Positions 37,211 to 50,404 of a DNA stretch of 64,000 nt are shown here, in pieces. Every line of letters begins with the position of its first letter. Positions within the stretch are counted from its first letter, which is position 1. The stretch comes from Rhodoferax fermentans (GTDB lineage Bacteria > Pseudomonadota > Gammaproteobacteria > Burkholderiales > Burkholderiaceae_C): NCBI RefSeq assembly GCF_002017865.1, contig NZ_MTJN01000002.1, positions 2,728,001-2,792,000 on the forward strand, in the 5' to 3' direction. The position numbers were made by a program, and so were the translations under genes. The notes below the pieces were generated by a model. It saw only the letters and a list, made by a program, of their open reading frames with translations, did not search any database and had not been told where the DNA came from.

Positions 37211-38161
37211 ATGCAAGAACCTTATCGCTCCCAACTGTCTTTGCCATTGAGCACTGCCCTGGTGGCGGCCATGGCCAAAATGACAGATGCCATTGGCAGC
37301 GCCCACTGGTTTGACGCGGTGCTCAATTTGTTGGGCACGGTCTGTGCCATTGATTCCGGTGGTGTGATGGTATACCACCGTGCGCAGCGACCGCGCCGGA
37401 TCGTACATCGCTTCAACCCGCAGGAGCGGGCTCTCCCAGAAGATGCCTACCTGTCCGGGCCGTATGTGTTGTGCCCGAATTACCAGCTGTTTGCCCAGGG
37501 TTGCCCCAGTGGCATCTACTGGCTGCGTGATATTGCCCCCGATGACTTTTACGAGAGTGAGTTCTACCGGGTGTTTTATTCACAGATTGGCTTGTCGGAC
37601 TCGATTGACCTGCTGTGGCGCATCAACGAGGACACGGCGTTGAACATCTTCATCGAGCGCAGCATCCGTCATGCCAAGTTCCAGCTGGAGGACATGGTTG
37701 CCATCAACATGTTGCTGCCGCTGATTTTTGCGTCCGCTGCCAAGCACCATGAGCTCACGGTGGCGACTTCACAACGTGACATCGACACCCTGACCCACCG
37801 CAAGGTGCAGAGCACCATCGAGAACTTTGCCAGTTCGCTGTTGACACAGCGTGAGCGCCAGGTGCTGTTCTACATGATCAGCGGTTACTCATCGGCGCTG
37901 ACCGCGCAGCGGCTCAGCACCACCGAAGGCACCATCAAGATCCACCGCAAGAACATCCACCGCAAGCTCGACATCAGCTCCCAGGCCGAACTGTTCTCCC
38001 TGTTCATCAACTGCATTCCGTATGCGGTGCCTGACGGGCAGGCGGACCCCCTGGAAGCCTACCAAAGCACGCCCCAGTCAAGGCGCAGTGTGTCCTTGCT
38101 GGAGGCTGCACCGCGTGTGCGGGAGCCCCGCACGACCGAAGTGCGGCCCAAAAACGCCTGA
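37211..38161 (+). CDS. LuxR-family transcriptional regulator
   Basis: A 316-residue regulator. The N-terminal ~200 residues are an effector domain I do not recognise. The C-terminal LuxR helix-turn-helix is at about 212-270 (LLTQRERQVLFYMISGYSSALTAQRLSTTEGTIKIHRKNIHRKLDI). Its stop is 4 bp from the converging M81 peptidase stop. It is the best local candidate to control the dpp/M81 and dgcNA operons, whose shared promoter region has two NarL/LuxR-like dyads. Confidence 0.88.
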   Translation: MQEPYRSQLSLPLSTALVAAMAKMTDAIGSAHWFDAVLNLLGTVCAIDSGGVMVYHRAQRPRRIVHRFNPQERALPEDAYLSGPYVLCPNYQLFAQGCPSGIYWLRDIAPDDFYESEFYRVFYSQIGLSDSIDLLWRINEDTALNIFIERSIRHAKFQLEDMVAINMLLPLIFASAAKHHELTVATSQRDIDTLTHRKVQSTIENFASSLLTQRERQVLFYMISGYSSALTAQRLSTTEGTIKIHRKNIHRKLDISSQAELFSLFINCIPYAVPDGQADPLEAYQSTPQSRRSVSLLEAAPRVREPRTTEVRPKNA

Positions 38162-38165
38162 GGCT

Positions 38166-39725
38166 TCAGCGCTTGGCGGGCAGGTACAGCCCTTGCGCGT
38201 GGGCGTTTTTCCAGGCGTTGATGTTGATGTCCTGGTCAAACGGAAACAAGGGGCGTGGCAGGTGTTCAAAGGGCAACTGGGTGTAGTCCAATGTGCACAA
38301 GGCTCCGCTGTCGCAGACGATGACTTCGTCAGCAATGGGCTCGAATGCGGCGCGGAAATGCTGCATCGACTTGAGCGCCACGACATGTTTGTGCTCGGGG
38401 TCGATGCCAAAGGCCTTGAACTGCTGCAGGTCCAGGATCTGGGCGCGCAGGGTCACCACCAGAATCTCGATACCGTCCACCTGCAGCACCGCCGTTGGCC
38501 CCCAGCTGCGTTGCAGGCCATGCAGCATGGCGCCACTACCGACATAGTGGCCGTCGCTGAGCAACTTCAGGGTGCCGCGTAAGGCCAGCGGTGCACCGCC
38601 AAATCGGGCGTCGGTCTTGCCACCCAGCAGCACGTCCACCCTGTCTCCTACCTGGTGCCGCATCAGCTGCTGAACCGTCTCGGGGTCGGTGATCGCGCCA
38701 AAACAGGCCTCCTGCACACCGGCTTGCAGCAAGGCCGCCAGCAGCGCGGTAGAGTCGCCATAGGCGCCACCTCCCGGGTTGTCGGCATAGTCTGCGACGA
38801 TGATTGGCCCCCGGCCCGGCACATGCTGCTGTGCATGCGCCAGGCACAGGGCTGCCGCCTGCTGCACCGTGTGAAACTGGTTGAGCCGGTCGTGCCGGCA
38901 CAACCACATGTCATCGGCCAGTTGCTGGGCAAAGGCGGCATGGGTCGCCATGTCGCCTTGCGCCGTGACCAGGATCGAGGGCCCCACTTCGCTGATGTCG
39001 GCATTGGCAAACCCCCCGTTGACACTGACCGCAAACACATCGGGCTGCGTCTCGTAGTTTCGGGCCAGTACCAGCCGCTGAAGCATCGGGCCGACATCGG
39101 TGCGGCCGCCGTTGACCTCCTCCAGCATGGGCCGCGACACGCGCAAAGTACGCGGCTGGATTTCACCCGCCATTGAGCGTTGCAGGATGTCTGCCGCGTG
39201 CCGTCCTGCCAGGCGCATGTCGGTGTGCGGGTAGGTTTTGAACGCCACCATGATGTTGGCCAGGTCACACATCAGGCGTGTGACATTGGCATGGGGGTCC
39301 AGCGTGATGCCAATCGGCAGTTCGGGGCCAACGATGGCGCGCAGTCGCCGCAGCAACTCTCCTTCGCCGTCGTCACAAAAATCCGTGACCATGGCGCCGT
39401 GCAGCCCGAGCAGGATGCCGTTGAGCTGGTCTTTGTGGGCCAATGCAGCGGCCAGGATCGGTTCACTCAATTGGTCAAACGCGGCACGGGTGACTTTGCC
39501 TCCTGGCTGGGCATGGGCGCTGATGGTATGCAGCACTTGCCAGCCATAGCTGCGCGCGGCTTCCAGAAACCCGCCCAGTTCGGTGTTGTTGTCCTGACGG
39601 GCGCGGATCGCCGCTTCCCCATACAACAAACCCCGTTCCGCAAAACTGGCCAGCGTGGTTGGCAGCGCACAAAACGTGTTGGTTTCGTGCAGCATTTCAG
39701 CGGTGAGAACGGTGAAGGGTGTCAT
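38166..39725 (-). CDS. M81-family metallopeptidase (MlrC-like)
   Basis: A 519-residue enzyme of the M81/MlrC family. Visible features are AEMLHETNTFCALPTTLASF at the start, LHGAMVTDFCDDGEGELLRRLR, DPHANVTRLMCD, and ADYADNPGGGAYGDSTALLAALL: the conserved His and Asp zinc ligands and the DNPGGG motif. The founding member MlrC hydrolyses the Adda-(D-iso)Glu bond of linearised microcystin. Here the gene is last in a peptide-transporter operon opposite D-glutamate catabolism genes, so a peptidase for D-Glu-containing peptides is a good guess. It is cytoplasmic (no signal). Confidence 0.88.
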   Translation of the reverse strand: MTPFTVLTAEMLHETNTFCALPTTLASFAERGLLYGEAAIRARQDNNTELGGFLEAARSYGWQVLHTISAHAQPGGKVTRAAFDQLSEPILAAALAHKDQLNGILLGLHGAMVTDFCDDGEGELLRRLRAIVGPELPIGITLDPHANVTRLMCDLANIMVAFKTYPHTDMRLAGRHAADILQRSMAGEIQPRTLRVSRPMLEEVNGGRTDVGPMLQRLVLARNYETQPDVFAVSVNGGFANADISEVGPSILVTAQGDMATHAAFAQQLADDMWLCRHDRLNQFHTVQQAAALCLAHAQQHVPGRGPIIVADYADNPGGGAYGDSTALLAALLQAGVQEACFGAITDPETVQQLMRHQVGDRVDVLLGGKTDARFGGAPLALRGTLKLLSDGHYVGSGAMLHGLQRSWGPTAVLQVDGIEILVVTLRAQILDLQQFKAFGIDPEHKHVVALKSMQHFRAAFEPIADEVIVCDSGALCTLDYTQLPFEHLPRPLFPFDQDININAWKNAHAQGLYLPAKR

Positions 39726-39734
39726 GGACAGGGC

Positions 39735-40718
39735 TCAGGTTGGCGGATGGTGACAGGCCAGTTCATGGCCGTCCCTCAGTACCAAGGCGGGGCGTTCGCT
39801 GCGACAACGGTCGCTGGCATGGGCGCAGCGTGCAGCGTAGGCACAACCGGGGGGCGGGTTGAAGGCGTCAGGGAGTTCTCCGTTCAGCCGGGTGATGACC
39901 CGCCGCTTGGCCGGGTCTGGCTCGAAGGTGCTTTCCATCAGGGCGATGGTGTAGGGGTGACGCGGTGGTGTGTCGGCGCTGGGTAGCACCTCGACGATGC
40001 GGCCCAGGTACATCACCACAATGCGGTCGCAGAAATAGCGCACCAGCCCCAGATCGTGCGAGATGAACAAATAGGTCAAACCCAGCTCCTGCTGCAGTTT
40101 CTCCAGCAAGGCGATGATCTGGGCCTGGATCGAGACGTCCAGTGAGGCGGTAGGTTCGTCCAGTACCAGGAACGACGGCTGCAGAGCCAACGCCCGGGCG
40201 ATACCAATACGTTGTTTCTGACCGCCGGACAACTGATGAGGATAACTCTGGGCCAGCGACGGATTGAGCCCGACCATGGCCATCAGGCTGTTGATGCGAT
40301 CGGTAGCGGCCGCAGCATGGAGATGTTCCCCCTGTACCTGCGACGGCTCCAGCAAGGCGGCACGGATGGTGTAGCGCGGGTCAATCGAGGAATAGGGGTC
40401 CTGAAACACAAACTGCAGACGCCGGCGCAGGCGGCGCATGGCGCTGGCCGACAGGCTGGCCAAATCCACGCCTTCAAACAGCACCTGACCCTGGTCGGCT
40501 TCCAGCAGCCTCAGCACCAGCCGCGCCAGCGTGGATTTGCCGCAACCAGACTCGCCGACCACACCGGTCACCTGACCACGCGGCACATCCAGACTCACAT
40601 CAGCTACCGCTGTCATGACACGTTTTCGACCAAACAGGCCATTGCGGCTGGTGAAGGTGCGGGTCAGCCCACGTACTTCCAGCAGTTTGGCCGACAGGGT
40701 GGGCGCTGTGTCAGCCAC
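39735..40718 (-). CDS. Peptide ABC transporter ATP-binding protein (DppF-like)
   Basis: A 327-residue ATPase with Walker A GESGCGKST, signature LSGGQKQRIGIARAL, Walker B FLVLDEPT and the oligopeptide C-terminal domain GCAYAARCAHASDRC. I chose the GTG at 40718, which has GGGAG upstream and overlaps the preceding stop by 8 bp. It is the second of two ATPases of the operon. Confidence 0.92.
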   Translation of the reverse strand: MADTAPTLSAKLLEVRGLTRTFTSRNGLFGRKRVMTAVADVSLDVPRGQVTGVVGESGCGKSTLARLVLRLLEADQGQVLFEGVDLASLSASAMRRLRRRLQFVFQDPYSSIDPRYTIRAALLEPSQVQGEHLHAAAATDRINSLMAMVGLNPSLAQSYPHQLSGGQKQRIGIARALALQPSFLVLDEPTASLDVSIQAQIIALLEKLQQELGLTYLFISHDLGLVRYFCDRIVVMYLGRIVEVLPSADTPPRHPYTIALMESTFEPDPAKRRVITRLNGELPDAFNPPPGCAYAARCAHASDRCRSERPALVLRDGHELACHHPPT

Positions 40719-41673
40719 GGCAAGCTCCCTCGGGGAAAAGACAGGCCACCTGGCCAGCGTCGTTTGCTTGCAGCAGCGGTACCTCGCTCTGGCAGCGATC
40801 TTGTGCGTGATCACAGCGTGGGTGGTAACGGCAACCGCTGGCAAAGTCACCCACTCCTGGCACCACGCCTGGAATGCCTTTCAGGCTACCCCGTGCCTGG
40901 CCGGTCTGGGCAATGCAGCCAATCAGAGCCCGTGTGTACGGGTGGGCTGGGCGGGCGAAGATGTTGTGTACCGAGTTGCTTTCGGCCACCCGACCGCCAT
41001 ACAGCACCACCACCTTGTCACAGGCCTGGGCCACCACCCCCATATCGTGGGTGATCAGGATCAGGGCCAGACCCCTCTGGCGCACCAGGTCGACCAGGAT
41101 CTGGATGATCTGGGCCTGGATGGTCACGTCCAGCGCGGTGGTTGGCTCATCCGCAATGATCAGGTCCGGATCACCGGCCAATGCCATGGCAATAACGATT
41201 CGCTGTTTCATGCCACCCGACATTTGGTGCGGGTACTGCTGGTAGACGGTTGCGGCATCCGGAATGCGCAGCTGTGCCAGCAACTCCAGTGTGCGAGTAC
41301 GCGCCTGGGCTGCAGAAAAGCCCAGGTGCAGCAACGCGACCTGGTCAATCTGGGCGCCCACGGTGTGCATCGGGTCGAGCGAGGTCATCGGGTTCTGGGT
41401 GATCAGCGCCAGACGCTGGCCACGCATGGCGCGGTAGGTTCGCTCGTTCAAGCCCACCAGTTCGGTGCCATCAAAGTCAATCGAACCGCGACTGATGTGG
41501 CCGCCGATCAGCGGTAACAGGCCCATGACGGCCATGGCCGTGAGTGATTTACCTGAGCCGGATTCCCCCACCACACCCAGGATCTGCCCCTTGTCGAGTT
41601 CGAGCGTGACGCCATCGAGCGGCTGCAAGCGTCCAATCGAGACACACAGGTGGCGCACAGTCAGTAAGGCCAT
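40711..41673 (-). CDS. Peptide ABC transporter ATP-binding protein (DppD-like)
   Basis: A 320-residue ATPase with GESGSGKSLTAMAVMG Walker A, MSGGMKQRIVIAMAL signature, LIIADEPTTALD Walker B and a cysteine-containing oligopeptide domain at the C-terminus (GCRYHPRCDHAQDRC). It pairs with DppF to drive import through DppB/DppC. Confidence 0.94.
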   Translation of the reverse strand: MALLTVRHLCVSIGRLQPLDGVTLELDKGQILGVVGESGSGKSLTAMAVMGLLPLIGGHISRGSIDFDGTELVGLNERTYRAMRGQRLALITQNPMTSLDPMHTVGAQIDQVALLHLGFSAAQARTRTLELLAQLRIPDAATVYQQYPHQMSGGMKQRIVIAMALAGDPDLIIADEPTTALDVTIQAQIIQILVDLVRQRGLALILITHDMGVVAQACDKVVVLYGGRVAESNSVHNIFARPAHPYTRALIGCIAQTGQARGSLKGIPGVVPGVGDFASGCRYHPRCDHAQDRCQSEVPLLQANDAGQVACLFPEGACRG

Positions 41674-41674
41674 G

Positions 41675-42529
41675 TCAGTTGTCTCTCAAGCGGTTTCGGA
41701 TGTCCAGCGCCTCGATCAGCGCATCGCCGAACAGGTTGATCGACACCACGGTGAAGGCAATGGCCAGTCCAGGGCCAAGGATGGTCCAGGGCGCCAGAAA
41801 GATCTGCGCAGTGCCGCTGCTCATCATCGCGCCCCAGCTGGGTTTGGGTGGTTGCACACCGAGCCCAAAAAAACCTAGCGTGGCCTCCAGAATGATGGCG
41901 TCGCCCATGGCCAACATGCCAGCCACGATCACCGGCGTGATGGCGTTGGGTAGCAGATGCCGAAACAGGATGTGGATGTGCCCGGCACCCAGGTTGACGG
42001 CGGCTTCCACATAGGTTTCGCTCTTGATGCTCATGACCTGGGCACGGGTCAGGCGTGCAAACTGCGCCAGATAAGCAATGCTGATGGCAATCATGGTGGC
42101 CTCCAGCCCGGCGCCGATCAATGCGACAAACATGAGCGCAATGAGCACCTCGGGAAAAGACCATGTCAGGTCCACCACCGCCGAGACCAGACGGTCAAAC
42201 AGACCACCAAAATAACCGGCTGCTGCACCCAGACTCATACCCACCAGCACCGACACGCTGATGGCGGTGATCGCCACCGTGAGTGAGGTACGGGCTCCCA
42301 CGATGATGCGTGACAACACATCCCGACCAAATTCATCGGTACCCAGCCAGTGGGCCCATGATGGGTCCTGGTTGGTGGCAGATAAATTCTGGATGTCGTA
42401 AGCGTAAGGGGCCAGCCATGGCGCGAACAGGGCACCACCCACCACGATCAGGATGCACAGCAGAGACACCCCCCCTCGCCAGGTGCCCAGAGTGCGTGAC
42501 AATGCACTGGATTTGCGCAAGCGGCTCAT
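41675..42529 (-). CDS. Peptide ABC transporter permease (DppC-like)
   Basis: A 284-residue permease with an N-terminal segment, HWLGTDEFGRDVLSRIIVGARTSL (the DppC hallmark) and the EAA loop EAAVNLGAGHIHILFRHLLPNA. About six hydrophobic helices. It overlaps the dppB stop by 4 bp. Confidence 0.94.
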   Translation of the reverse strand: MSRLRKSSALSRTLGTWRGGVSLLCILIVVGGALFAPWLAPYAYDIQNLSATNQDPSWAHWLGTDEFGRDVLSRIIVGARTSLTVAITAISVSVLVGMSLGAAAGYFGGLFDRLVSAVVDLTWSFPEVLIALMFVALIGAGLEATMIAISIAYLAQFARLTRAQVMSIKSETYVEAAVNLGAGHIHILFRHLLPNAITPVIVAGMLAMGDAIILEATLGFFGLGVQPPKPSWGAMMSSGTAQIFLAPWTILGPGLAIAFTVVSINLFGDALIEALDIRNRLRDN

Positions 42530-43473
42530 TTCAGGCTGTCCCGCACACGGGGGTCCAGGCTGGCCTGCACCAGATCTCCGAGCAGGGTGCCCAGCATCAC
42601 GGCCATGGCCAACATCAGCAGGCAGCCTTGCACCACCGGATAGTCACGCTGGTTGAGTGAGGTGATCAGCAGCGAGCCCAAGCCAGGGCGGGCAAACACA
42701 AATTCGATGGTGACGGCACCGCCCACAATCCAGCCAATGCGCAGGCTCAGGATGGTCACCACGGGCAGCAAGGCGTGGCGCAGGACGTGCTGCAGCTGGA
42801 TGCGCCGGTGTGACAGGCCTTTGGCATGCAGCATCAGCACAAAGTCCCGGCGACCGACATCGAGCATCGCGGCGCGGGTCACGCGTGACACCAGGGCCAC
42901 GCCGTGCAGGCCAATGGTCAGTACCGGCAACACCAGGGCGCTCCAGCTGCGGGCACCCGATACTGGAAACCACTCCAGTTGTACCGCAAACACCAGAATC
43001 AACAACAGGCCGAGCCAGAAGCTCGGCAAGGTCGATCCCAGCAGGATCAGCGTCATCACCCCGCGATCAATCCAGCTATCCTTGTAAATGGCCGCCAGGG
43101 CGCCGCTGGCAACACCCACGATGGCTGAAAACGCGAATGCCAGACAACCCAGCAGCAGGCTGTGCGGCAGGTTCTCCTCAATCAACTCGGCCACCGGGCG
43201 ACGCAGGATGATGGCATTGCCTAGATCACCCTCGAGCAGGTTGCGAAACCACACGCCGTACTGGACCAGAAGCGGTTTGTCCAGGCCATATTTGGCGATC
43301 AGTTCGGCCCGTTGTTCAGGAGAGGAGCCGATCTGCACCATGTTGTCGATCGGGTCTCCAGGCACCATGTGGATGATCAAAAAGATGATCATCGACACCG
43401 CAAGAAACACCGGCACCAGCATCAGCAAACGTTTGATCACAAAATTCAGCAAACCGGGATTCCTTGTTGTCAA
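42526..43473 (-). CDS. Peptide ABC transporter permease (DppB-like)
   Basis: A 315-residue permease with N-terminal VIKRLLMLVPVFLAVSMIIFLIIHMVPGDPIDNM and the EAA-like loop LMLHAKGLSHRRIQLQHVLRHALLPVV. It is the DppB partner of the following permease. Six hydrophobic segments are seen. Confidence 0.94.
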   Translation of the reverse strand: MTTRNPGLLNFVIKRLLMLVPVFLAVSMIIFLIIHMVPGDPIDNMVQIGSSPEQRAELIAKYGLDKPLLVQYGVWFRNLLEGDLGNAIILRRPVAELIEENLPHSLLLGCLAFAFSAIVGVASGALAAIYKDSWIDRGVMTLILLGSTLPSFWLGLLLILVFAVQLEWFPVSGARSWSALVLPVLTIGLHGVALVSRVTRAAMLDVGRRDFVLMLHAKGLSHRRIQLQHVLRHALLPVVTILSLRIGWIVGGAVTIEFVFARPGLGSLLITSLNQRDYPVVQGCLLMLAMAVMLGTLLGDLVQASLDPRVRDSLK

Positions 43474-43505
43474 ACAGTGTGATGGCGCATGTCGGTCCGG
43501 TGGGT

Positions 43506-45092
43506 TTACTTGACCTCTATGTCCATGATGGATTGGGTAGCAAGCTTGATGCCACGGATGTTGTCAGGCATTTTCAACCTGGTGGTGCTGTAGGCAAAGC
43601 TCTGGGTTGGCTGGTAGATCGGTGCAAACAGGAATTGCGACATGATGTACTCGTGATAGGCCTTGAAGTTGCTGACCCTTTCATCCCAGGTCTTGGAGCC
43701 TTTCATCGCTTTCGCGTTGAGGGCTTCCCCCTTGGGGTCGTTCCACATCGAGATGTTGGGGTAACCCAGGCGGGTGCCGCTGAAGAACCAGTCCAGGATG
43801 TCGGCGTTCACATAGTCGTAACTGCGTACCGCCAGCTGGTGGTCGGTTTTCTTTTTGTACATGGCGTTGATTGACGCGGCGTCCTGCACCGTAATCTCGG
43901 CATTCACCCCCACGGCTTTCAACTGGGCCTGAATCACCTCGGTCACACGTTTGAACTGGGTGCCGTTCTGGGTCCAGAGTTTGACCGTCAGCGGCACACC
44001 ACCTTTGGCGCGCACCCCGCCCGCACCCATCAGCCAGCCCGCTTCGTCAAGCAGCTTTTTCGACCGATCCGGGTTGTAGCTGATGTTGAATTTGGGGTTG
44101 ATCTTGGACTCCTGCAAGCTGCTGACCAGGAAGTTGTTGGCCACCGCACCGGTGCCACCAAACAGGCTGCTCATGATTTCCTTCTGGTTGACGGCAAGTG
44201 CCACGGCTTCCCGCACCTTGATGTCCGTGAAGGGTTCAACCGAGGTGTTGATCGGCATGTAAAACACCTCGGTGCCAGGCAGCATCACCACCTTGATCGA
44301 CTTCTCGGCCTGCAGTTTGGGCAGGAAGTCGGTTGGCACACTCAGCAGCGCATCCACCCCACCGGTCTTGAGCTCCAAGAAGGCGGTGGAGTCTTCGCTG
44401 ATTTCGCGCAGCGTCAGGTTTTTGATCTTGGCTGGCCCCTGGTTCTTCGATAGGTCCGAGGCCCAGCGGTAGTCTTCGTTGCGCACCAGTTTGGTCTGCT
44501 GGCCAACGGTGAAGCTCTCTAGTTTGAACGGGCCACTGCCAACGGCAGCGGCCACACCAAACTTGTCACCCAGTGCCTCGTAGGACTTCGGTGAAGGTAC
44601 CCCCATGAAACTGGTGGCCAGGTTGAACAGCAGCGCGGGGTCCGGGTTCTTCATGACCAGTTTGACGGTGTAGTCGTCAATGATGACGATCTTGTCAATC
44701 GACTCAGTCATGTAGGCGTTTTCGGTGCCCTTGAACTTGGGCAGCCACCATTCGATCACTTTGGCGTTGAAAGGCTCGCCGTCGTGGAATTTGACCCCCT
44801 TGCGCAGCTTGAAAGTCCAGCTCATTCCGTCAGGTGCCGACTCCCAGGAGGTGGCCAACTGGCCGTGGAAACTGTGGTCGGCATCCTGCACCACCAGGCG
44901 GTCAAAAATCAGGTTGTTTGCGACATTGAGCTTGGTGCCCTTGAGCGGGTTGTAGGTCGGAAAACCGTTTTCACGTGCGTTGATGACAAAGGTCGCGTCC
45001 TGGGCGAACACGGGCGCCGACCCTGCCACAACGCAGACCCCCGCCAAAGCAAGCAACACAACTTTCACCGAGTGGTTTAAACGATTCATCAT
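43506..45092 (-). CDS. Peptide ABC transporter periplasmic binding protein (DppA/OppA-like, SBP_bac_5)
   Basis: A 528-residue secreted binding protein. The signal peptide is VKVVLLALAGVCVVAGSAPVFA with cleavage near AQDA. The family signature ATSWESAPDGMSWTFKLRKGVKFHDGEPFNA is at about 82-112. It would bind short peptides in the periplasm; the ligand cannot be read from sequence. It is the first gene of the dppABCDF-M81 operon and divergent from dgcN. Confidence 0.94.
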   Translation of the reverse strand: MMNRLNHSVKVVLLALAGVCVVAGSAPVFAQDATFVINARENGFPTYNPLKGTKLNVANNLIFDRLVVQDADHSFHGQLATSWESAPDGMSWTFKLRKGVKFHDGEPFNAKVIEWWLPKFKGTENAYMTESIDKIVIIDDYTVKLVMKNPDPALLFNLATSFMGVPSPKSYEALGDKFGVAAAVGSGPFKLESFTVGQQTKLVRNEDYRWASDLSKNQGPAKIKNLTLREISEDSTAFLELKTGGVDALLSVPTDFLPKLQAEKSIKVVMLPGTEVFYMPINTSVEPFTDIKVREAVALAVNQKEIMSSLFGGTGAVANNFLVSSLQESKINPKFNISYNPDRSKKLLDEAGWLMGAGGVRAKGGVPLTVKLWTQNGTQFKRVTEVIQAQLKAVGVNAEITVQDAASINAMYKKKTDHQLAVRSYDYVNADILDWFFSGTRLGYPNISMWNDPKGEALNAKAMKGSKTWDERVSNFKAYHEYIMSQFLFAPIYQPTQSFAYSTTRLKMPDNIRGIKLATQSIMDIEVK

Positions 45093-45379
45093 GACTTCCT
45101 GAAAAGTACCAGGCCGTGTGGGGCATGGCGTGGGGTTGACGAGGGTTACACAGAGGCGTCACAAAGCATAAGTGCATTTGTCAGTCGTGAAGGCGCATCT
45201 ATCCCCAAAGGGGTAGTGTGTCCAGAAGTTGCCCTAGTACCGGACTATCAACTATCCCGCAGGGAGTAGGTGGACCAATAACGCACCATTTCGGGGCTGG
45301 AATGCCTTTATTCTTGTTCCCACCAAGACCCTGGGCGTCTGCCATGGTCAATGCCCCTTTTTGAAGAGACGGACTCCCC
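45093..45379. promoter_or_regulatory. Divergent dppA/dgcN promoter region with two dyads
   Basis: This is 287 bp between the divergent peptide-transport and D-glutamate operons. It contains CTATCCCCAAAGGGGTAG (45199-45216) and CTATCCCGCAGGGAGTAG (45252-45269), two related 18-bp dyads centred 53 bp apart (about five helical turns). They are candidate operators for the LuxR-family regulator of the locus. Confidence 0.65.
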
Positions 45380-46387
45380 ATGCATCAACTCCGAAAACCC
45401 TATCTGTTGTTTCTGGGCGATGTGGCGCTGAAATCTGACGCAAAAACGGCGTTTGGCCTGCGTGACTGGTGCCGCGCTGATGTGCTGGGTGAGTGGAGCC
45501 TGCCCGAGGCCACGGTCAGCCTGGACTTGCCCAGGTTGTCACCCGCCGAGGCGGCTCGCCAAGGCGCCGGGTCCATCGTGATTGGGGTCGCTGCGGTGGG
45601 GGGGGTGTTGCCACCGCAGTGGTTGTCAGAGCTGGAGGCTGCGCTGGAAGCGGGTCTGGACGTAGTGAGCGGTCAGCACTCCCGCTTGAGTTCGTTCCCC
45701 AGCCTGGTGCAGGCAGCCCAGCGCGGCGGCGGGCGGCTGATTGATGTGCGCCACTCGGACCAGAGTTTTCCTGCCGGTACCGGCAGGAAACGCAGCGGCA
45801 AACGGGTGTTGACGGTTGGCACCGACTGCGCCCTGGGCAAGAAATACACCGCCCTGGCCTTGACCCAGGCCTTGCATCAGCTAGGTGCGGCAGCCACCTT
45901 CCGGGCCACCGGTCAGACCGGTGTGATGATTGCCGGTGCCGGGGTCGCCATTGACGCAGTGATTGCCGACTTTGTCGCGGGTGCCGCAGAACAGCTCTCG
46001 CCGGACAACGCGCCCGGCCATTGGGACGTGATTGAAGGGCAGGGCGCGTTGTTCCACCCCGCCTATGCCGGTGTAACGCTGGGCCTGTTGCATGGTTCAC
46101 AACCCGATGCCCTGGTGCTGTGCCACGACCCGTCGCGCGACACCATCGAAACCTACCCCGACTTTCCCATCCCCGATTTGCAGGTGGCGATAGACCGTTA
46201 TGTCGAAGCGGCGCGTTTGACCAACCGGGCGGTGCGCTGTGTGGGCCTGAGCATCAACTCCTCAAGCCTGTCGGATGCCGACTGGGCCAGCTACGCCAGC
46301 GCCCTGTCAACGCGCTTGCAGTTGCCGGTGGTGGACCCATTGCGTGGGGGTGTGGCGGCGCTGGCCCAGGCCTTGTTGCCGCTATGA
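45380..46387 (+). CDS. dgcN: D-glutamate N-acetyltransferase DgcN-like (DUF1611)
   Basis: A 335-residue DUF1611 protein with a P-loop-like GTDCALGKKYTALALTQAL near 148-166, ATGQTGVMIAG and EGQGALFHPAYAGVTLGLLHGS in the C-terminal domain. DgcN of marine bacteria N-acetylates D-glutamate; DgcA then racemises it and L-glutamate is released. The adjacent gene is a DgcA-type enolase-superfamily enzyme with a 4-bp overlap, which strongly supports this pair. The assignment rests on family and neighbourhood. Confidence 0.85.
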   Translation: MHQLRKPYLLFLGDVALKSDAKTAFGLRDWCRADVLGEWSLPEATVSLDLPRLSPAEAARQGAGSIVIGVAAVGGVLPPQWLSELEAALEAGLDVVSGQHSRLSSFPSLVQAAQRGGGRLIDVRHSDQSFPAGTGRKRSGKRVLTVGTDCALGKKYTALALTQALHQLGAAATFRATGQTGVMIAGAGVAIDAVIADFVAGAAEQLSPDNAPGHWDVIEGQGALFHPAYAGVTLGLLHGSQPDALVLCHDPSRDTIETYPDFPIPDLQVAIDRYVEAARLTNRAVRCVGLSINSSSLSDADWASYASALSTRLQLPVVDPLRGGVAALAQALLPL

Positions 46388-47367
46388 TGCACTGTGACAC
46401 CGTCATTGAACACTGGGAGATGATCGAGCCCTTCGAGATCTCGCGCGAAGTCATCACCCACCAGCCGGTCATGATCCTGCGTTTGCAGGACGCATCGGGC
46501 CACCGTGGTTGGTCTGAGGCCGCAGGTATCGACTACGAGGGCGAAACCCCGCAGAGTATGGTGGCGCAGATCGCTGCCCTGCAAGATCGTTTGCACGATG
46601 GGCTCAGCCATGACGAGGTGGCCGAGATGCTGCCTGCCGGTGGTGCCCGCAACGCCCTGGATTGCGCACTGTGGGATCTGCGCGCGAAACAGACGGGTGT
46701 GCCGGTGTGGCAGGCAGCGGGGTTGCCACCCTGGCAGCCGGTCACCACCGCCTTCACCCTGGGCCTGGGCGACGAGGCCACCACCCGGCGTAAGGCCCGG
46801 CAAGCCCGCGCCTACCCTTTGTTGAAACTCAAGGTGGACGCCCAGCGCCACCTTGATGTGGTGCAGATGGTGCGCCAGGAACACCCCAGCGCCCGCATTG
46901 TGGTGGATGCCAACCAGTCCTGGACGGTGGACCTTTTGCGGCAACTGCTGCCTTCGCTGGCCGCCGCCGGGGTCGAGCTGGTGGAGCAACCCCTGCCCAA
47001 GGGGCAGGATGCCGAGCTGGCCGGCTTGTCCTCACCGCTGCCCCTGGCGGCGGACGAATCCTGTACCGATCGCGCTTCTTTGGCGCAACTGCTCGGGCGT
47101 TACCAGTACATCAATATCAAGCTCGATAAATGTGGCGGGCTGACCGAAGGACTGGCATTGGCCGATGAAGCTGCCCGGCTGGGCCTGGGCCTGATGGTGG
47201 GCAACATGTGTGGCAGTTCGCTGGCGATGGCGCCGGCCTTTGTGCTGGCACAGCGTTGCGCCTATGTGGACCTCGATGGCCCCTTGTTACAAAAGAAAGA
47301 CAGCACTCCCCCGATGCGCTACAGCCACGGCGTGATTCAGGCGCCCGAGCCGGCGCTGTGGGGCTAG
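46384..47367 (+). CDS. dgcA: N-acetyl-D-glutamate racemase DgcA-like (enolase superfamily)
   Basis: A 327-residue member of the enolase superfamily, muconate-lactonizing/dipeptide-epimerase subgroup. The catalytic KxK is in LLKLKVD, metal ligands are in VVDANQSW, VEQPLP and ADES, and the second lysine is in NIKLDKCGG. Together with DgcN it would convert D-Glu to L-Glu via N-acetylated intermediates. A plain L-Ala-D/L-Glu epimerase role (ykfB/ycjG-like) is the main alternative and also fits a peptide-scavenging locus. The ATG overlaps the dgcN stop (ATGA). Confidence 0.85.
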   Translation: MMHCDTVIEHWEMIEPFEISREVITHQPVMILRLQDASGHRGWSEAAGIDYEGETPQSMVAQIAALQDRLHDGLSHDEVAEMLPAGGARNALDCALWDLRAKQTGVPVWQAAGLPPWQPVTTAFTLGLGDEATTRRKARQARAYPLLKLKVDAQRHLDVVQMVRQEHPSARIVVDANQSWTVDLLRQLLPSLAAAGVELVEQPLPKGQDAELAGLSSPLPLAADESCTDRASLAQLLGRYQYINIKLDKCGGLTEGLALADEAARLGLGLMVGNMCGSSLAMAPAFVLAQRCAYVDLDGPLLQKKDSTPPMRYSHGVIQAPEPALWG

Positions 47368-47617
47368 CACCGGGGCGTATGTAACGCTGCTGCGCTGACA
47401 TGGCTTGATTCACCTCCGCTTAAACAGCGGGTCTTGCTGCCGTGTCGACATGAACAAAGTGTGCGCCGAGTGCCGCCGCTCGTGTGCTGAATCGACCATT
47501 CCATCGCCTATTCTGCCGCTCCGAATTTAGGCCAACAAGGCCAATTTGGCATTCCTACACTGCGCCGCATCCGAGGTCAGCTTCAACGATCACGGCCATC
47601 AAAAAGGAGTAGTAGTT

Positions 47618-48898
47618 ATGTCCATCAGCAACACCCTAGACGGCGGCACCTTCCGCCCCGTCGCCGCGTCATCATGGACGGCCCACGACAGAACATGGGT
47701 TCTGGGCCTGTTTGCAACCGCCATTGGTGCGGGCACTTTGTTCCTGCCGATCAACGCAGGTTTGGGTGGCATCTGGCCCCTGTTGGTCATGGCGGTCCTG
47801 GCTTTTCCGATGACGTACCTGGCGCATCGTGGTTTGATCCGCTTCATTCTGTCGTCGTCCAAACCTGGCAGTGACATCACCGAGGTGGTGGGCGAGCATT
47901 TTGGCCCGATGGCTGGCAAGCTGATCACGCTGCTCTATTTCTTCACGATCTTGCCGATCCTGTTGCTCTACGGTGTTGGGCTGACCAACACGGTCGAATC
48001 CTTCATGGTGCACCAGATGGGCATGGCGGCTTTGCCACGTGTGCTTCTGTCCTTTGTCCTGACGGCAGGCTTGATCGGTATTGTCTGCGCCAGTGAGCAG
48101 ATGGTGGTGCGTGTCATGGGCTGGCTGGTCTACCCCTTCATCTTTGTTCTGATCGGCCTGGGCTTGTTCCTGGTTCCCGAATGGAATGGCGCGGTGCTGC
48201 AAGGTGTGCCGTCGGCCAGCAAGTTCAGCGTGACGCTGTGGCTGAGTATTCCGGTTCTGGTGTTTTCCTTCAACCACTCGCCGGTGATCTCCCGTTTTGC
48301 GGTGGCACAGCAACTGCAGTACGGCAACAGCGCGGTCAAAAAAGCTGATCGCATTGAAAAGTACGCGGCTTTGCTGATGGTGGTGGTGGTGATGTTTTTT
48401 GTCTTCAGCTGTGTGTTTGCACTGTCTCCAGCCGATCTGTCCGCAGCCAAAGACCAGAACATTTCTATCCTGTCCTACATCGGCAACAAGTTCCAGAACC
48501 CCTACGTGGCCCTGATTGCGCCGATGGTGGCCTTTATTGCGATGTCCAAGTCCTTCCTCGGCCACTACCTGGGCGCACGTGAAGGCCTGAACGGTTTTAT
48601 TGCACAACAACTCGAAAGCCGCAAAAAGTCGGCCAGCACCAAGACCATCAACCGCTACAGCATGCTGTTCATGTTCGTGACGATCTGGGTTGTGGCCACG
48701 CTCAACCCGAGCATCCTGGGCATGATCGAGTCCCTGTGTGGCCCGGTCATCGCGGCCCTGCTGTTTGTGATGCCGATGTACGCGATCCGCAAAGTGCCGT
48801 CGATGCGCAAATATGCCAACAACCCGACCAATGTCCTGGTGCTGTTCATCGGTGCCGTGGCGATGTCAGCGATCTTCTACTCCCTGCTCGGCCTCTGA
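47618..48898 (+). CDS. sdaC: Serine/threonine transporter (SdaC/HAAAP family)
   Basis: A 426-residue transporter with about 11 hydrophobic helices, from MSISNTLDGG; AAGGAG lies upstream. FATAIGAGTLFLPINAGLGGIWPLLVMAVLAFPMTYLAHRGL at the N-terminus and IAMSKSFLGHYLGAREG near the C-terminal third are HAAAP/STP motifs. It would import L-serine by proton symport. It is paired with the serine deaminase gene 93 bp downstream. Confidence 0.92.
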   Translation: MSISNTLDGGTFRPVAASSWTAHDRTWVLGLFATAIGAGTLFLPINAGLGGIWPLLVMAVLAFPMTYLAHRGLIRFILSSSKPGSDITEVVGEHFGPMAGKLITLLYFFTILPILLLYGVGLTNTVESFMVHQMGMAALPRVLLSFVLTAGLIGIVCASEQMVVRVMGWLVYPFIFVLIGLGLFLVPEWNGAVLQGVPSASKFSVTLWLSIPVLVFSFNHSPVISRFAVAQQLQYGNSAVKKADRIEKYAALLMVVVVMFFVFSCVFALSPADLSAAKDQNISILSYIGNKFQNPYVALIAPMVAFIAMSKSFLGHYLGAREGLNGFIAQQLESRKKSASTKTINRYSMLFMFVTIWVVATLNPSILGMIESLCGPVIAALLFVMPMYAIRKVPSMRKYANNPTNVLVLFIGAVAMSAIFYSLLGL

Positions 48899-48991
48899 TC
48901 GTCAACCAACGCTTCCTTTTGCCTTCGCGCCCCAAGCCAACTGGACTGGCGGCGCTGGCAAGAGCCTCCGTTTCAAACTGGAATTCACACC

Positions 48992-50404
48992 ATGATCAGC
49001 ATGTTTCACCTCTACAAGGTCGGGATCGGCCCCTCCAGCTCCCACACCCTTGGCCCGATGAATGCCGCCAGGCGTTTTGTGGATGATCTGCGCGGGCTGG
49101 GCAAACTGGCCCAAGCCACTTCGGTCGTGATCGATGTGTATGGCTCTCTGGCCCTGACCGGGCTGGGCCACAAGACCGATGTGGCCCTGTTGCTGGGTCT
49201 GATGGGGGAGCTGCCGGACACCATTGATGTGGGCGCCATCCCCGGCTTGATCCAGAAGGTGCGCAGCACCCAGCGCATCCAGCTCGGGCTGGATGGCCCC
49301 GAGGTGGACTTCGGGCGCACGGCCATGACCTTCCACCACTCCAACCTGCCCAGGCACGAAAACGGCCTCACCCTGAAAGCCTTTGCCGGAGAGCGCCTGT
49401 TGCTGGACAAAAACTACTACTCGATTGGAGGTGGTTTTGTCATCGAGGATGGCTGCGCCACCAGCGCAGATGACACCGAGGCTGCCGCTCCGTATCCCTA
49501 TACCAATGCCGCGGAGCTACTGGCCCAATGCCGCCGCACAGGTCTGTCCCTGTCTGGTCTGGTGTTGGAGAACGAGCTGTGTCTGCACACCCAGCAAGAG
49601 ATCAGCAGCTACTTTGGCAACATCTGGGCGCGGATGTCCCAGTGTATGGAGCGCGGCATGAAGACCGAAGGTGTGTTGCCCGGTCCGTTTCGTGTGCCGC
49701 GCAGAGCGGTGGCGCTGCACCGGCGGCTGAGCTCGGCCGGACCACTGTCCAAAGACCCGATGAATATCATCGACTGGGTCAATATGTTTGCACTGGCGGT
49801 GTCTGAAGAAAACGCCGCTGGCGGCCGCGTGGTCACCGCACCGACCAATGGTGCCTGTGGCATCGTGCCGGCGGTGCTGGCCTACTACGACCAGTTCATC
49901 CACAAGCTCGACGAAGACAGTTGCAACCGCTTCTTTCTGGCCTCCGCCGCCATTGGTGGTTTGTTCAAACGCAATGCGTCGATCTCCGGTGCCGAAGTGG
50001 GTTGCCAGGGGGAAGTCGGGGTGGCGTGTTCGATGGCGGCGGCCGGTCTGGCCGAGTTGCTGGGCGGCTCGCCCGAGCAGGTCTGCATCGCCGCGGAAAT
50101 TGCCATGGAACATAATTTGGGCCTCACCTGTGACCCGGTTGGCGGGCAGGTGCAAATCCCGTGTATCGAGCGCAATGCGATGGGTGCGGTCAAAGCCATC
50201 AATGCGGCGCGCATGGCGCTGTGTCGTACCAGCGAACCGATTGTTCCCCTCGACAAAGTGATCGAGGTGATGTTTGAAGTTGGCAAAGACATGAATCCCA
50301 AATACCGTGAAACCTCCTGTGGCGGCTTGGCCCTGAAAATGTTGGCACCGATACCTTCGGTGGCAGCTGACCCCGAGCCCGAGTGCATTTGCTGGGCGCC
50401 TTGA
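48992..50404 (+). CDS. sdaA: L-serine ammonia-lyase (Fe-S type)
   Basis: A 470-residue single-chain L-serine dehydratase converting L-serine to pyruvate and ammonia. The beta domain begins MFHLYKVGIGPSSSHTLGPMNAA. Conserved cysteines for the 4Fe-4S cluster are in TNGACGIVPAVL, TCDPVGGQVQIPCIERN and ETSCGGLALKML. It follows the serine transporter, a classic sdaC-sdaA catabolic pair. Confidence 0.95.
   Translation: MISMFHLYKVGIGPSSSHTLGPMNAARRFVDDLRGLGKLAQATSVVIDVYGSLALTGLGHKTDVALLLGLMGELPDTIDVGAIPGLIQKVRSTQRIQLGLDGPEVDFGRTAMTFHHSNLPRHENGLTLKAFAGERLLLDKNYYSIGGGFVIEDGCATSADDTEAAAPYPYTNAAELLAQCRRTGLSLSGLVLENELCLHTQQEISSYFGNIWARMSQCMERGMKTEGVLPGPFRVPRRAVALHRRLSSAGPLSKDPMNIIDWVNMFALAVSEENAAGGRVVTAPTNGACGIVPAVLAYYDQFIHKLDEDSCNRFFLASAAIGGLFKRNASISGAEVGCQGEVGVACSMAAAGLAELLGGSPEQVCIAAEIAMEHNLGLTCDPVGGQVQIPCIERNAMGAVKAINAARMALCRTSEPIVPLDKVIEVMFEVGKDMNPKYRETSCGGLALKMLAPIPSVAADPEPECICWAP

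What the first reader, a model, noticed from the sequence alone, without database searches (positions are those of the whole stretch)
37211..47367. Import and catabolism locus for D-(iso)glutamate peptides: LuxR regulator, dppABCDF-type transporter, MlrC-type M81 peptidase and DgcN-DgcA
Seen: a peptide ABC operon ending in an M81 peptidase, divergent from overlapping DUF1611 (DgcN) and enolase-superfamily (DgcA) genes, with a LuxR-family gene at the far end. Known: MlrC, founder of M81, cuts next to the D-iso-glutamyl residue of linearised microcystin; DgcN/DgcA convert D-Glu to L-Glu through N-acetyl intermediates. Inference: the locus imports peptides holding D-(iso)Glu (peptidoglycan or cyanobacterial peptides such as microcystin/nodularin fragments), cleaves them and converts the D-Glu to L-Glu. 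I know of no description of these three functions as one system.
Basis: partly seen in the sequence, partly recalled or inferred. Interest (0 to 1): 0.85.

Follow-up and report, generated by a model that had tools for sequence, protein, structure and literature searches.

The report
Swappable D-amino-acid peptide uptake cassette
A Rhodoferax-like bacterium carries, beside one dedicated regulator, genes that appear to import small peptides, cut them and turn the mirror-image amino acid D-glutamate into usable L-glutamate; related bacteria keep the regulator and the D-glutamate enzymes but swap the uptake part, which hints at what a common but poorly understood peptidase family may do.

Summary
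The genes are real and correctly placed: luxR, convergent dppABCDF-M81, divergent dgcN-dgcA, in a Rhodoferax-like genome. DgcA passes NCBI's equivalog cut-off; DgcN falls below it (439 of 480 bits).

The locus is modular. In Rhodoferax and kin the slot between luxR and dgcN holds M81-dpp, a lone amino-acid-binding protein, or nothing. A sister genome (95-96% identical in the flanks) lacks the M81-dpp block. Two 18-bp palindromes 53-56 bp apart precede dgcN in 10 of 11 loci whatever the cassette. In the sister genome the same palindrome lies before a binding-protein gene elsewhere, so it is probably the LuxR operator.

Of nine related dpp-M81 operons in other lineages, six have D-amino-acid enzymes beside them (DauA-like dehydrogenase, or acetyltransferase plus N-acylamino-acid racemase). 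A second M81 clade is also dgcN-linked.

Best reading: import and cleavage of D-amino-acid peptides feeding DgcN-DgcA. Microcystin is not supported: zinc ligands are kept, Adda-contacting aromatics are not. D-isoglutamyl specificity is not shown. Phylum-wide, M81-dgcN linkage is rare, and generic FAD-oxidoreductase genes are no commoner near M81 than in controls.

The parts
37211..38161 (+). LuxR-family regulator: VqsR-LBD/autoinducer-domain-like sensor plus GerE HTH; a match (one of them a fragment) in all 11 genus genomes that have the >=80% DgcN
38166..39725 (-). M81 zinc metallopeptidase, last gene of the dpp operon; zinc-ligand positions E14, D143, H145, H167
39735..40715 (-). dppF-type ATPase (start approximate)
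40711..41673 (-). dppD-type ATPase
41675..42529 (-). dppC-type permease
42526..43473 (-). dppB-type permease
43506..45092 (-). dppA-type family-5 solute-binding protein, first gene of the operon
38116..45304 (.). block without a match in the sister genome's locus (G182, L151), which has about 200 unrelated bases instead; identity 95.9% up to 38115 and 95.3% from 45305
45199..45216 (.). distal palindrome CTATCCCCAAAGGGGTAG, candidate LuxR operator 1
45252..45269 (.). proximal palindrome CTATCCCGCAGGGAGTAG, candidate LuxR operator 2, 53 bp downstream
45380..46387 (+). dgcN (DUF1611), D-Glu N-acetyltransferase family; 47.9% identical to DgcN of Pseudoalteromonas CF6-2
46384..47367 (+). dgcA, enolase-superfamily N-acetyl-D-Glu racemase; 39.6% identical to DgcA of CF6-2; motifs KLK, DAN, EQP, DES and KLDK present (roles recalled)

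Best explanation
The locus is a LuxR-controlled D-amino-acid salvage island. Inferred working: a LuxR regulator with a VqsR/autoinducer-type sensor domain binds two palindromes, about five helical turns apart, between dppA and dgcN and drives both divergent transcripts. DppABCDF imports short peptides, or peptide-like molecules, that contain D-amino acids. The M81 zinc hydrolase, which has no obvious signal peptide by eye and so is probably cytoplasmic, cuts them. DgcN acetylates the released D-Glu (perhaps also D-Gln or D-Asp), and DgcA converts N-acetyl-D-Glu to N-acetyl-L-Glu for arginine synthesis or deacetylation. Shown here, by sequence: gene content, recurring order, the shared palindrome pair, co-occurrence, cassette exchange, conserved zinc-ligand positions, and D-amino-acid enzyme homologues beside six of nine related operons. 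Inferred: substrate, binding and direction of regulation, and M81 specificity. Murein peptides are the likeliest natural source, because they are the commonest D-Glu peptides (general knowledge, not tested).
For: In 89 genus genomes LuxR accompanies all 11 genomes with DgcN >=80% identical (Fisher 1e-11); M81 >=70% identical occurs in 10, of which 8 have that DgcN (Fisher 1e-7); the genomes are related, so the p-values are descriptive. Slot swap: M81-dpp, SBP_3 or empty between luxR and dgcN. Palindrome pair 53-56 bp apart in 10 of 11 loci; the 11th keeps one perfect and one degenerate copy at 53 bp. G182 has a perfect copy before an SBP_3 gene on another contig. The nine closest dpp-M81 operons found outside the genus have a DauA-like D-amino-acid dehydrogenase nearby in 5 and a GNAT plus N-acylamino-acid racemase in 1. 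DauA-like genes occur in 4 of 42 M81 windows, 0 of 20 shifted controls and 0 of 20 dgcN windows. A second M81 clade is dgcN-linked. Zinc-ligand positions are conserved.
Against: Close M81-dgcN linkage is rare phylum-wide (2 of 79 dgcN places). Over all 42 M81 windows, FAD oxidoreductases of the DAO kind are not enriched (7 of 42, controls 3 of 20). The sister genome lives without M81-dpp. SBP_3 resembles histidine/LAO-binding rather than glutamate-binding proteins, and DauA is named for D-Arg, so D-Glu need not be the common substrate. DppA is not close to any one solved peptide-binding protein; its best hits include NikA. DgcN misses its NCBIfam cut-off. Of the nine related operons L264 and L221 show no D-amino-acid gene and L262 only a distant FAD oxidoreductase; two of the six positives, L220 and L266, are near-identical and so hardly independent.
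Confidence: 0.6

Rival explanations
1. General peptide scavenging: M81-dpp imports and cuts ordinary peptides, and DgcN-DgcA merely share a promoter region and nutrient-responsive regulator with it.
For: dpp-type genes are common beside M81 (permeases in 18 of 42 M81 windows, 1 of 20 controls), only 2 of those 42 windows have dgcN, and generic DAO-kind genes are not enriched there (7 of 42, controls 3 of 20); the cassette is dispensable.
Against: The closest related operons sit near D-amino-acid dehydrogenase or racemase homologues in 6 of 9; the same slot is filled by another uptake protein, which elsewhere carries the same palindrome; M81 is linked to dgcN in two separate clades.
Confidence: 0.2
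2. The imported molecule is not a peptide but an opine-like or other N-substituted amino acid that yields a D- or acidic amino acid after M81 amide hydrolysis.
For: Microvirga M81 relatives sit with an ornithine-cyclodeaminase-family gene, a FAD oxidoreductase and LAO-type binding proteins; DppA has NikA among its best solved hits; SBP_3 differs by eye from HisJ at ligand anchors (D30E, D161N, S70G; anchor numbering recalled).
Against: The dpp-type transporter and the dgcN-S12-TonB-M81 suites look peptide-directed.
Confidence: 0.13
3. Microcystin or nodularin fragment catabolism, as the first reader suggested among options.
For: M81 homology to MlrC (197 bits to 7ylq); MlrC cuts the Adda-Glu bond (PMC4810221, passages read).
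Against: MlrC W59, F67 and F96 align with L34, A42 and H71 (residue roles from PMC9982164, abstract and passages); the window M81 is in a different clade; no S12 (MlrB-type) gene was found at window 28001-50000 with the seeds used.
Confidence: 0.04

Closest known systems
DgcN-DgcA D-glutamate pathway of Pseudoalteromonas sp. CF6-2
   Same: dgcN and dgcA overlap in one operon; DgcN 47.9% and DgcA 39.6% identical; DgcA above the NCBIfam equivalog cut-off
   Different: CF6-2 has a LysR-type DgcR, and the annotated features within 9 kb on each side include a TonB receptor, an amidohydrolase, an M14 carboxypeptidase and an NhaC antiporter but no M81 or dpp; here a LuxR regulator and M81-dpp
MlrC microcystinase (M81) and the mlr cluster
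   Same: M81 family; zinc-ligand positions and several other residues shared
   Different: Adda-contacting aromatics absent, different M81 clade, no S12 gene found in the locus; dpp operon instead
RpiR-dppABCDF-M81 operons on alphaproteobacterial plasmids and in genomes of other classes of the phylum
   Same: same order dppA to M81; M81 53-62% and DppA 53-66% identical in the eight computed
   Different: RpiR regulator in 8 of 9 in place of LuxR; D-amino-acid dehydrogenase or N-acylamino-acid racemase in place of DgcN-DgcA in 6 of 9; annotated only generically in the records seen
LuxR-SBP_3-dgcN loci of other Rhodoferax and kin
   Same: same luxR, palindrome pair and dgcN, with dgcA where the contig reaches
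   Different: a single HisJ/LAO-like binding protein in the slot instead of M81-dpp

Membership tests
DgcN-DgcA D-Glu pathway | DgcA equivalog score above cut-off | tested here: met
   415.6 bits against 400; CF6-2 DgcA scores 412
DgcN-DgcA D-Glu pathway | DgcN equivalog score above cut-off | tested here: not met
   439.2 bits against 480; CF6-2 DgcN scores 493. DUF1611 membership is clear, so DgcN activity is a claim of similarity, not of membership
DgcN-DgcA D-Glu pathway | adjacent overlapping dgcN-dgcA | tested here: met
   DgcA found beside DgcN in 18 of 20 chosen phylum loci (16 of them from one family), 0 of 20 shifted controls
DgcN-DgcA D-Glu pathway | LysR-type DgcR regulator | tested here: not met
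   LuxR-type here; DgcR in CF6-2 is LysR
DgcN-DgcA D-Glu pathway | growth on and conversion of D-Glu | not testable with these tools
   needs bench work
M81 metallopeptidase | both Pfam domains and the zinc ligands of MlrC (E39, D167, H169, H191) | tested here: met
MlrC microcystinase | Adda-contacting residues W59, F67, F96 | tested here: not met
   L34, A42, H71 in the window (by alignment)
MlrC microcystinase | groups with MlrC in a tree | tested here: not met
   separate clades; MlrC has a long branch, so its own place is unsure
Dpp/Opp peptide ABC transporter | SBP_bac_5, two permeases, two ATPases with oligo_HPY | tested here: met
Dpp/Opp peptide ABC transporter | peptide substrate | not testable with these tools
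   best PDB hits are mixed: 5u4o, NikA, YliB and DppA

The most novel reading that the evidence does not exclude
dppABCDF-M81 is a portable uptake-and-cleavage module for D-amino-acid peptides that is plugged into alternative D-amino-acid disposal chemistries (DgcN-DgcA, DauA-like dehydrogenase, or acyltransferase plus N-acylamino-acid racemase), while the LuxR-DgcN-DgcA unit in turn swaps uptake modules. The general role of the M81 family, often annotated as 'microcystin degradation protein', would then be hydrolysis next to D-residues, with MlrC a specialised offshoot.
Probability: 0.35. Interest if true: 0.78.

Novelty: new variant of a known kind. Interest (0 to 1): 0.6.

Why it matters
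M81 proteins are common and often named after microcystin degradation (many hits carry that name), although it is hard to see why most of their carriers would meet microcystin (my inference). The locus gives a concrete, testable role for one M81 clade: releasing D-amino acids from imported peptides. The natural slot swap and the two-site operator candidate offer ready-made genetic controls. If true it would also link D-Glu recycling to peptide uptake, which matters for turnover of cell-wall material.

Tried and rejected
Microcystin as substrate: not supported on residues and tree. A general S12-TonB-dgcN system: S12 occurs in 48 and TonB in 39 of the 79 loci nearest to the query, but in only 3 and 1 of 20 chosen phylum loci (shifted controls 0 and 0); 16 of those 20 are from one family and the profiles were built partly from the 79 loci, so this only says that the association is lineage-bound. 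A claim of widespread M81-dgcN linkage: rejected. FAD oxidoreductases of the DAO kind beside M81 in general: 7 of 42 against 3 of 20 controls, no enrichment; only the narrower DauA type differs (4 of 42 against 0 of 20). SdaC-SdaA as part of the system: they follow dgcA in the window and the sister genome, but other genes follow in the loci looked at. Horizontal-transfer signal in G+C: none clear. SBP_3 as an evident glutamate binder: not supported. A palindrome scan with a 3-base spacer missed the sites; the 4-base spacer found them. A search of 399 order genomes for close M81 relatives (E <= 1e-100) gave only the window and G671 at 46%, whose flank L218 shows no dgcN in the part held. Dropped before counting: two weak DgcN matches (E about 1e-4), and M81 matches at 41% identity or less or fragments under E 1e-100. 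The M81 hit in L104 has a very long branch and is doubtful; it is among the 10 of 79. The first M81 tree held 51 rows; L104 and L156_823 were left out of the second, smaller one (37 rows). In L230 my ORF scan labelled no M81. The LuxR model is of low confidence (pLDDT 66).
Full report
OBSERVATION. The operon runs dppA to M81, convergent with luxR and divergent from dgcN. DgcA scores 415.6 bits against an NCBIfam cut-off of 400; DgcN scores 439.2 against 480. Against Pseudoalteromonas CF6-2, whose record names these genes dgcR, dgcN and dgcA, DgcN is 47.9% and DgcA 39.6% identical. CF6-2 DgcN itself scores 493 and its DgcA 412. The window lies in a two-contig genome of 4.47 Mb. Its DgcN is 98% identical to one in Rhodoferax sp. 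U11-2br.

CONSERVATION IN THE GENUS. In 89 genus genomes, the window's own included, DgcN (E below 1e-60) is in 13, of which 11 are at 80% identity or more, one of these a fragment. M81 at 70% or more is in 10; 28 have any M81 match, and apart from fragments of the close type the next M81 in the list is 41% identical. LuxR is in 14. All 11 genomes with the close DgcN have a LuxR match, one a fragment. Eight of the 10 genomes with close M81 have the close DgcN, and all 10 have LuxR. The three genomes with LuxR but no DgcN (G167, G168, G234) are 88, 80 and 81% complete, and the M81 contigs of G167 and G234 end inside or beside the cassette. The genomes are related, so the Fisher values are descriptive.

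A SLOT WITH EXCHANGEABLE CONTENTS. Reading the contigs, luxR, M81-dpp and dgcN-dgcA lie together in the window, L155, L156, L158 and L159. L153 has M81-dpp-dgcN-dgcA, but its contig starts at M81 and its luxR is on another contig. Four more contigs (L164 to L167) show luxR with M81 and then break. All five dpp genes were labelled by my script in L158 and L159, as in the window; in L153, L155 and L156 one was not labelled, probably hidden by an overlapping ORF. In four other genomes (L154, L055, L056, L047) the same slot holds a single SBP_3 protein of 258 residues (322 as called in L047) in the same orientation. In G182 (L151) the slot is empty. Aligned with G182, the window is 95.9% identical up to 38115 and 95.3% identical from 45305; the 7.2 kb between has no match there, where about 200 other bases lie instead, and G182 has no M81 match at all.

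SHARED PALINDROMES. Upstream of dgcN there are two copies of an 18-base palindrome, consensus about CTAYCCCNNNNGGGRTAG. In 10 of 11 loci both copies are within 2 mismatches and start 53 to 56 bases apart, whatever the cassette; the empty slot keeps one perfect copy and a degenerate one (4 mismatches) 53 bases on. None of 2000 shuffles of the window's intergenic region had such a pair (mononucleotide shuffles, and the pattern was derived from these loci). With one mismatch allowed, G000 has four distinct places, two of which are this pair; the control pattern gives similar total counts per genome, so single sites mean little and the pair is what counts. A partly independent check came from G182. 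Its only other exact match lies about 107 bases before an SBP_3 gene 77% identical to a slot SBP_3, on another contig. The palindrome therefore appears to go with the uptake gene. That LuxR binds it is inferred. The LuxR N-domain resembles the VqsR ligand-binding domain (phmmer E 8.8e-7; Foldseek E 3.4e-9), on a model of low confidence.

WHAT THE M81-DPP OPERON IS ELSEWHERE. In two trees the window M81 forms a clade with its Rhodoferax kin (100/100). This sits in a 19-row clade (100/99) with the four M81s that scored above 540 bits among 42 M81 windows of the phylum and its neighbours (L249, L261, L262, L264) and with the eight best of 64 plasmid records (contexts). Nine of these twelve have dpp genes: five plasmids with all five dpp genes annotated (L219, L220, L221, L224, L266), L264 with five, L249 and L261 with four and L262 with two as labelled by my script. 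RpiR regulators precede 8 of 9. Near the operon, 5 of 9 have a FAD enzyme of the DauA type: L261 gives 319 bits to D-arginine dehydrogenase DauA, and L249, L220, L266 (partial) and L219 (partial) are 46-52% identical to it. L220 and L266 are near-identical. L224 has an acetyltransferase and an enolase-superfamily protein with 428 bits to N-acylamino-acid racemase, in kind the same two steps that DgcN and DgcA perform. L219 also has an 'amino acid deaminase' related to hydroxy-D-aspartate aldolase, an S12 hydrolase and a second FAD oxidoreductase whose solved relatives are glycine oxidases. L262 has only a distant FAD oxidoreductase, and L264 and L221 show none of these. Against the idea as a rule for all M81: DAO-kind genes occur in 7 of 42 M81 windows and in 3 of 20 controls. 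The narrower DauA type occurs in 4 of the 42, 0 of 20 controls and 0 of 20 dgcN windows. The controls are stretches shifted by about 100-110 kb from dgcN loci, mostly of one family, and are not matched to the M81 genomes. Three Microvirga plasmid M81s of the clade sit with LAO-type binding proteins and no dpp; two are annotated, with an ornithine-cyclodeaminase-family gene and a FAD oxidoreductase, and the third was read by my scan only.

A SECOND M81-dgcN LINKAGE. In G062 (L043) and G077 (L044), dgcN-dgcA lie with M81s scoring 346 (L043) and 312 (one of two in L044) bits to the MlrC model, S12 hydrolases, TonB receptors and, in L043, an MFS transporter. Six such M81s form one clade (100/98) on the MlrC side of the tree. 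G310 (L194) adds an S12-TonB-dgcN-dgcA-S12-M81-TonB suite. MlrC and L194 have long branches, so their exact places are unsure. So M81 has come beside dgcN in at least two separate lines.

HOW GENERAL. In 398 phylum genomes, DUF1611 is in 71 (79 places) and M81 in 59 (92 places), at E <= 1e-30; 19 have both (odds 2.6, p 0.003, counts entered by hand). Only the window and G310 have them within 10 kb (read from the coordinates). In 150 family genomes, 3 of 8 strong DUF1611 places, the window included, have M81 within 10 kb. Among the 79 loci nearest to the query, M81 was found in 10, one doubtful. In 42 M81-centred windows (40 of the phylum places, one each for 37 genera plus three extra, with G310 and the window), dpp permeases occur in 18 against 1 of 20 controls, and dgcN in 2, namely the window and G310.

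CATALYTIC RESIDUES. MlrC zinc ligands E39, D167, H169 and H191 (PMC9982164, abstract and passages; PMC4810221, passages, for the last three) correspond to E14, D143, H145 and H167. The last three are kept in all nine window-clade members aligned and E14 in seven, the other two being gapped there. The Adda-contacting W59, F67 and F96 align with L34, A42 and H71. The proposed base E70 is not conserved across the aligned family either. On this evidence the locus is not a microcystinase locus.

LITERATURE. The D-Glu pathway is described by Yu et al. 2023 (not held; seen as a reference and in passages of PMC12363236; PMC10845958 passages). In the held open library, searches for MlrC with D-amino acid and ABC transporter, and for MlrC with D-glutamic acid and racemase, found no paper. 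In the listings of searches (titles and starts of abstracts; 7, 27 and 106 list only part of what matched) I saw none on this combination. That is no proof that it is unpublished.

VERDICT. A real, modular and probably co-regulated locus. The step that would settle it is an assay of M81 on D-residue peptides.

Noticed in passing
window 47612-50404: A serine/threonine transporter (SdaC type) and L-serine dehydratase follow dgcA; conserved at 99% in sister L151 but replaced by other genes in the other luxR-dgcN loci looked at.
   Followed up: partly
L171 4237-5137: In G182 a stand-alone SBP_3 gene has a perfect copy of the palindrome about 107 bases upstream, on a different contig from luxR-dgcN.
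   Followed up: yes
L224 1780-3632: Pseudosulfitobacter plasmid: GNAT acetyltransferase plus N-acylamino-acid racemase divergent from RpiR-dpp-M81, a chemical parallel to DgcN-DgcA.
   Followed up: partly
L156 823-2433: G231 has a second, distant M81 near the same dgcN locus, next to a DUF2817 protein and a TctC-type binding protein.
   Followed up: no
L223 1-11075: The dgcN-dgcA locus of Pseudoalteromonas CF6-2 also lies near a TonB receptor, an amidohydrolase and an M14 carboxypeptidase.
   Followed up: no
plasmid collection: DgcN homologues (E <= 1e-60) occur on 77 plasmid records, 20 of Klebsiella and 12 of Pantoea; 25 of the 77 are typed as conjugative.
   Followed up: no
L172 and L173: The two other palindrome-like sites of the window's genome lie near proteins with the same N-terminal sequence, probably copies of one mobile element.
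   Followed up: no
L061, L162, L045, L160, L161: A different dgcN lineage (about 70% identity): in L061 and L162 with an S12 hydrolase, TonB receptor, M32 carboxypeptidase, MFS transporter and FAD oxidoreductase, in the others with part of these. Genus genomes G221 and G225, which carry only this type, have no LuxR match.
   Followed up: partly
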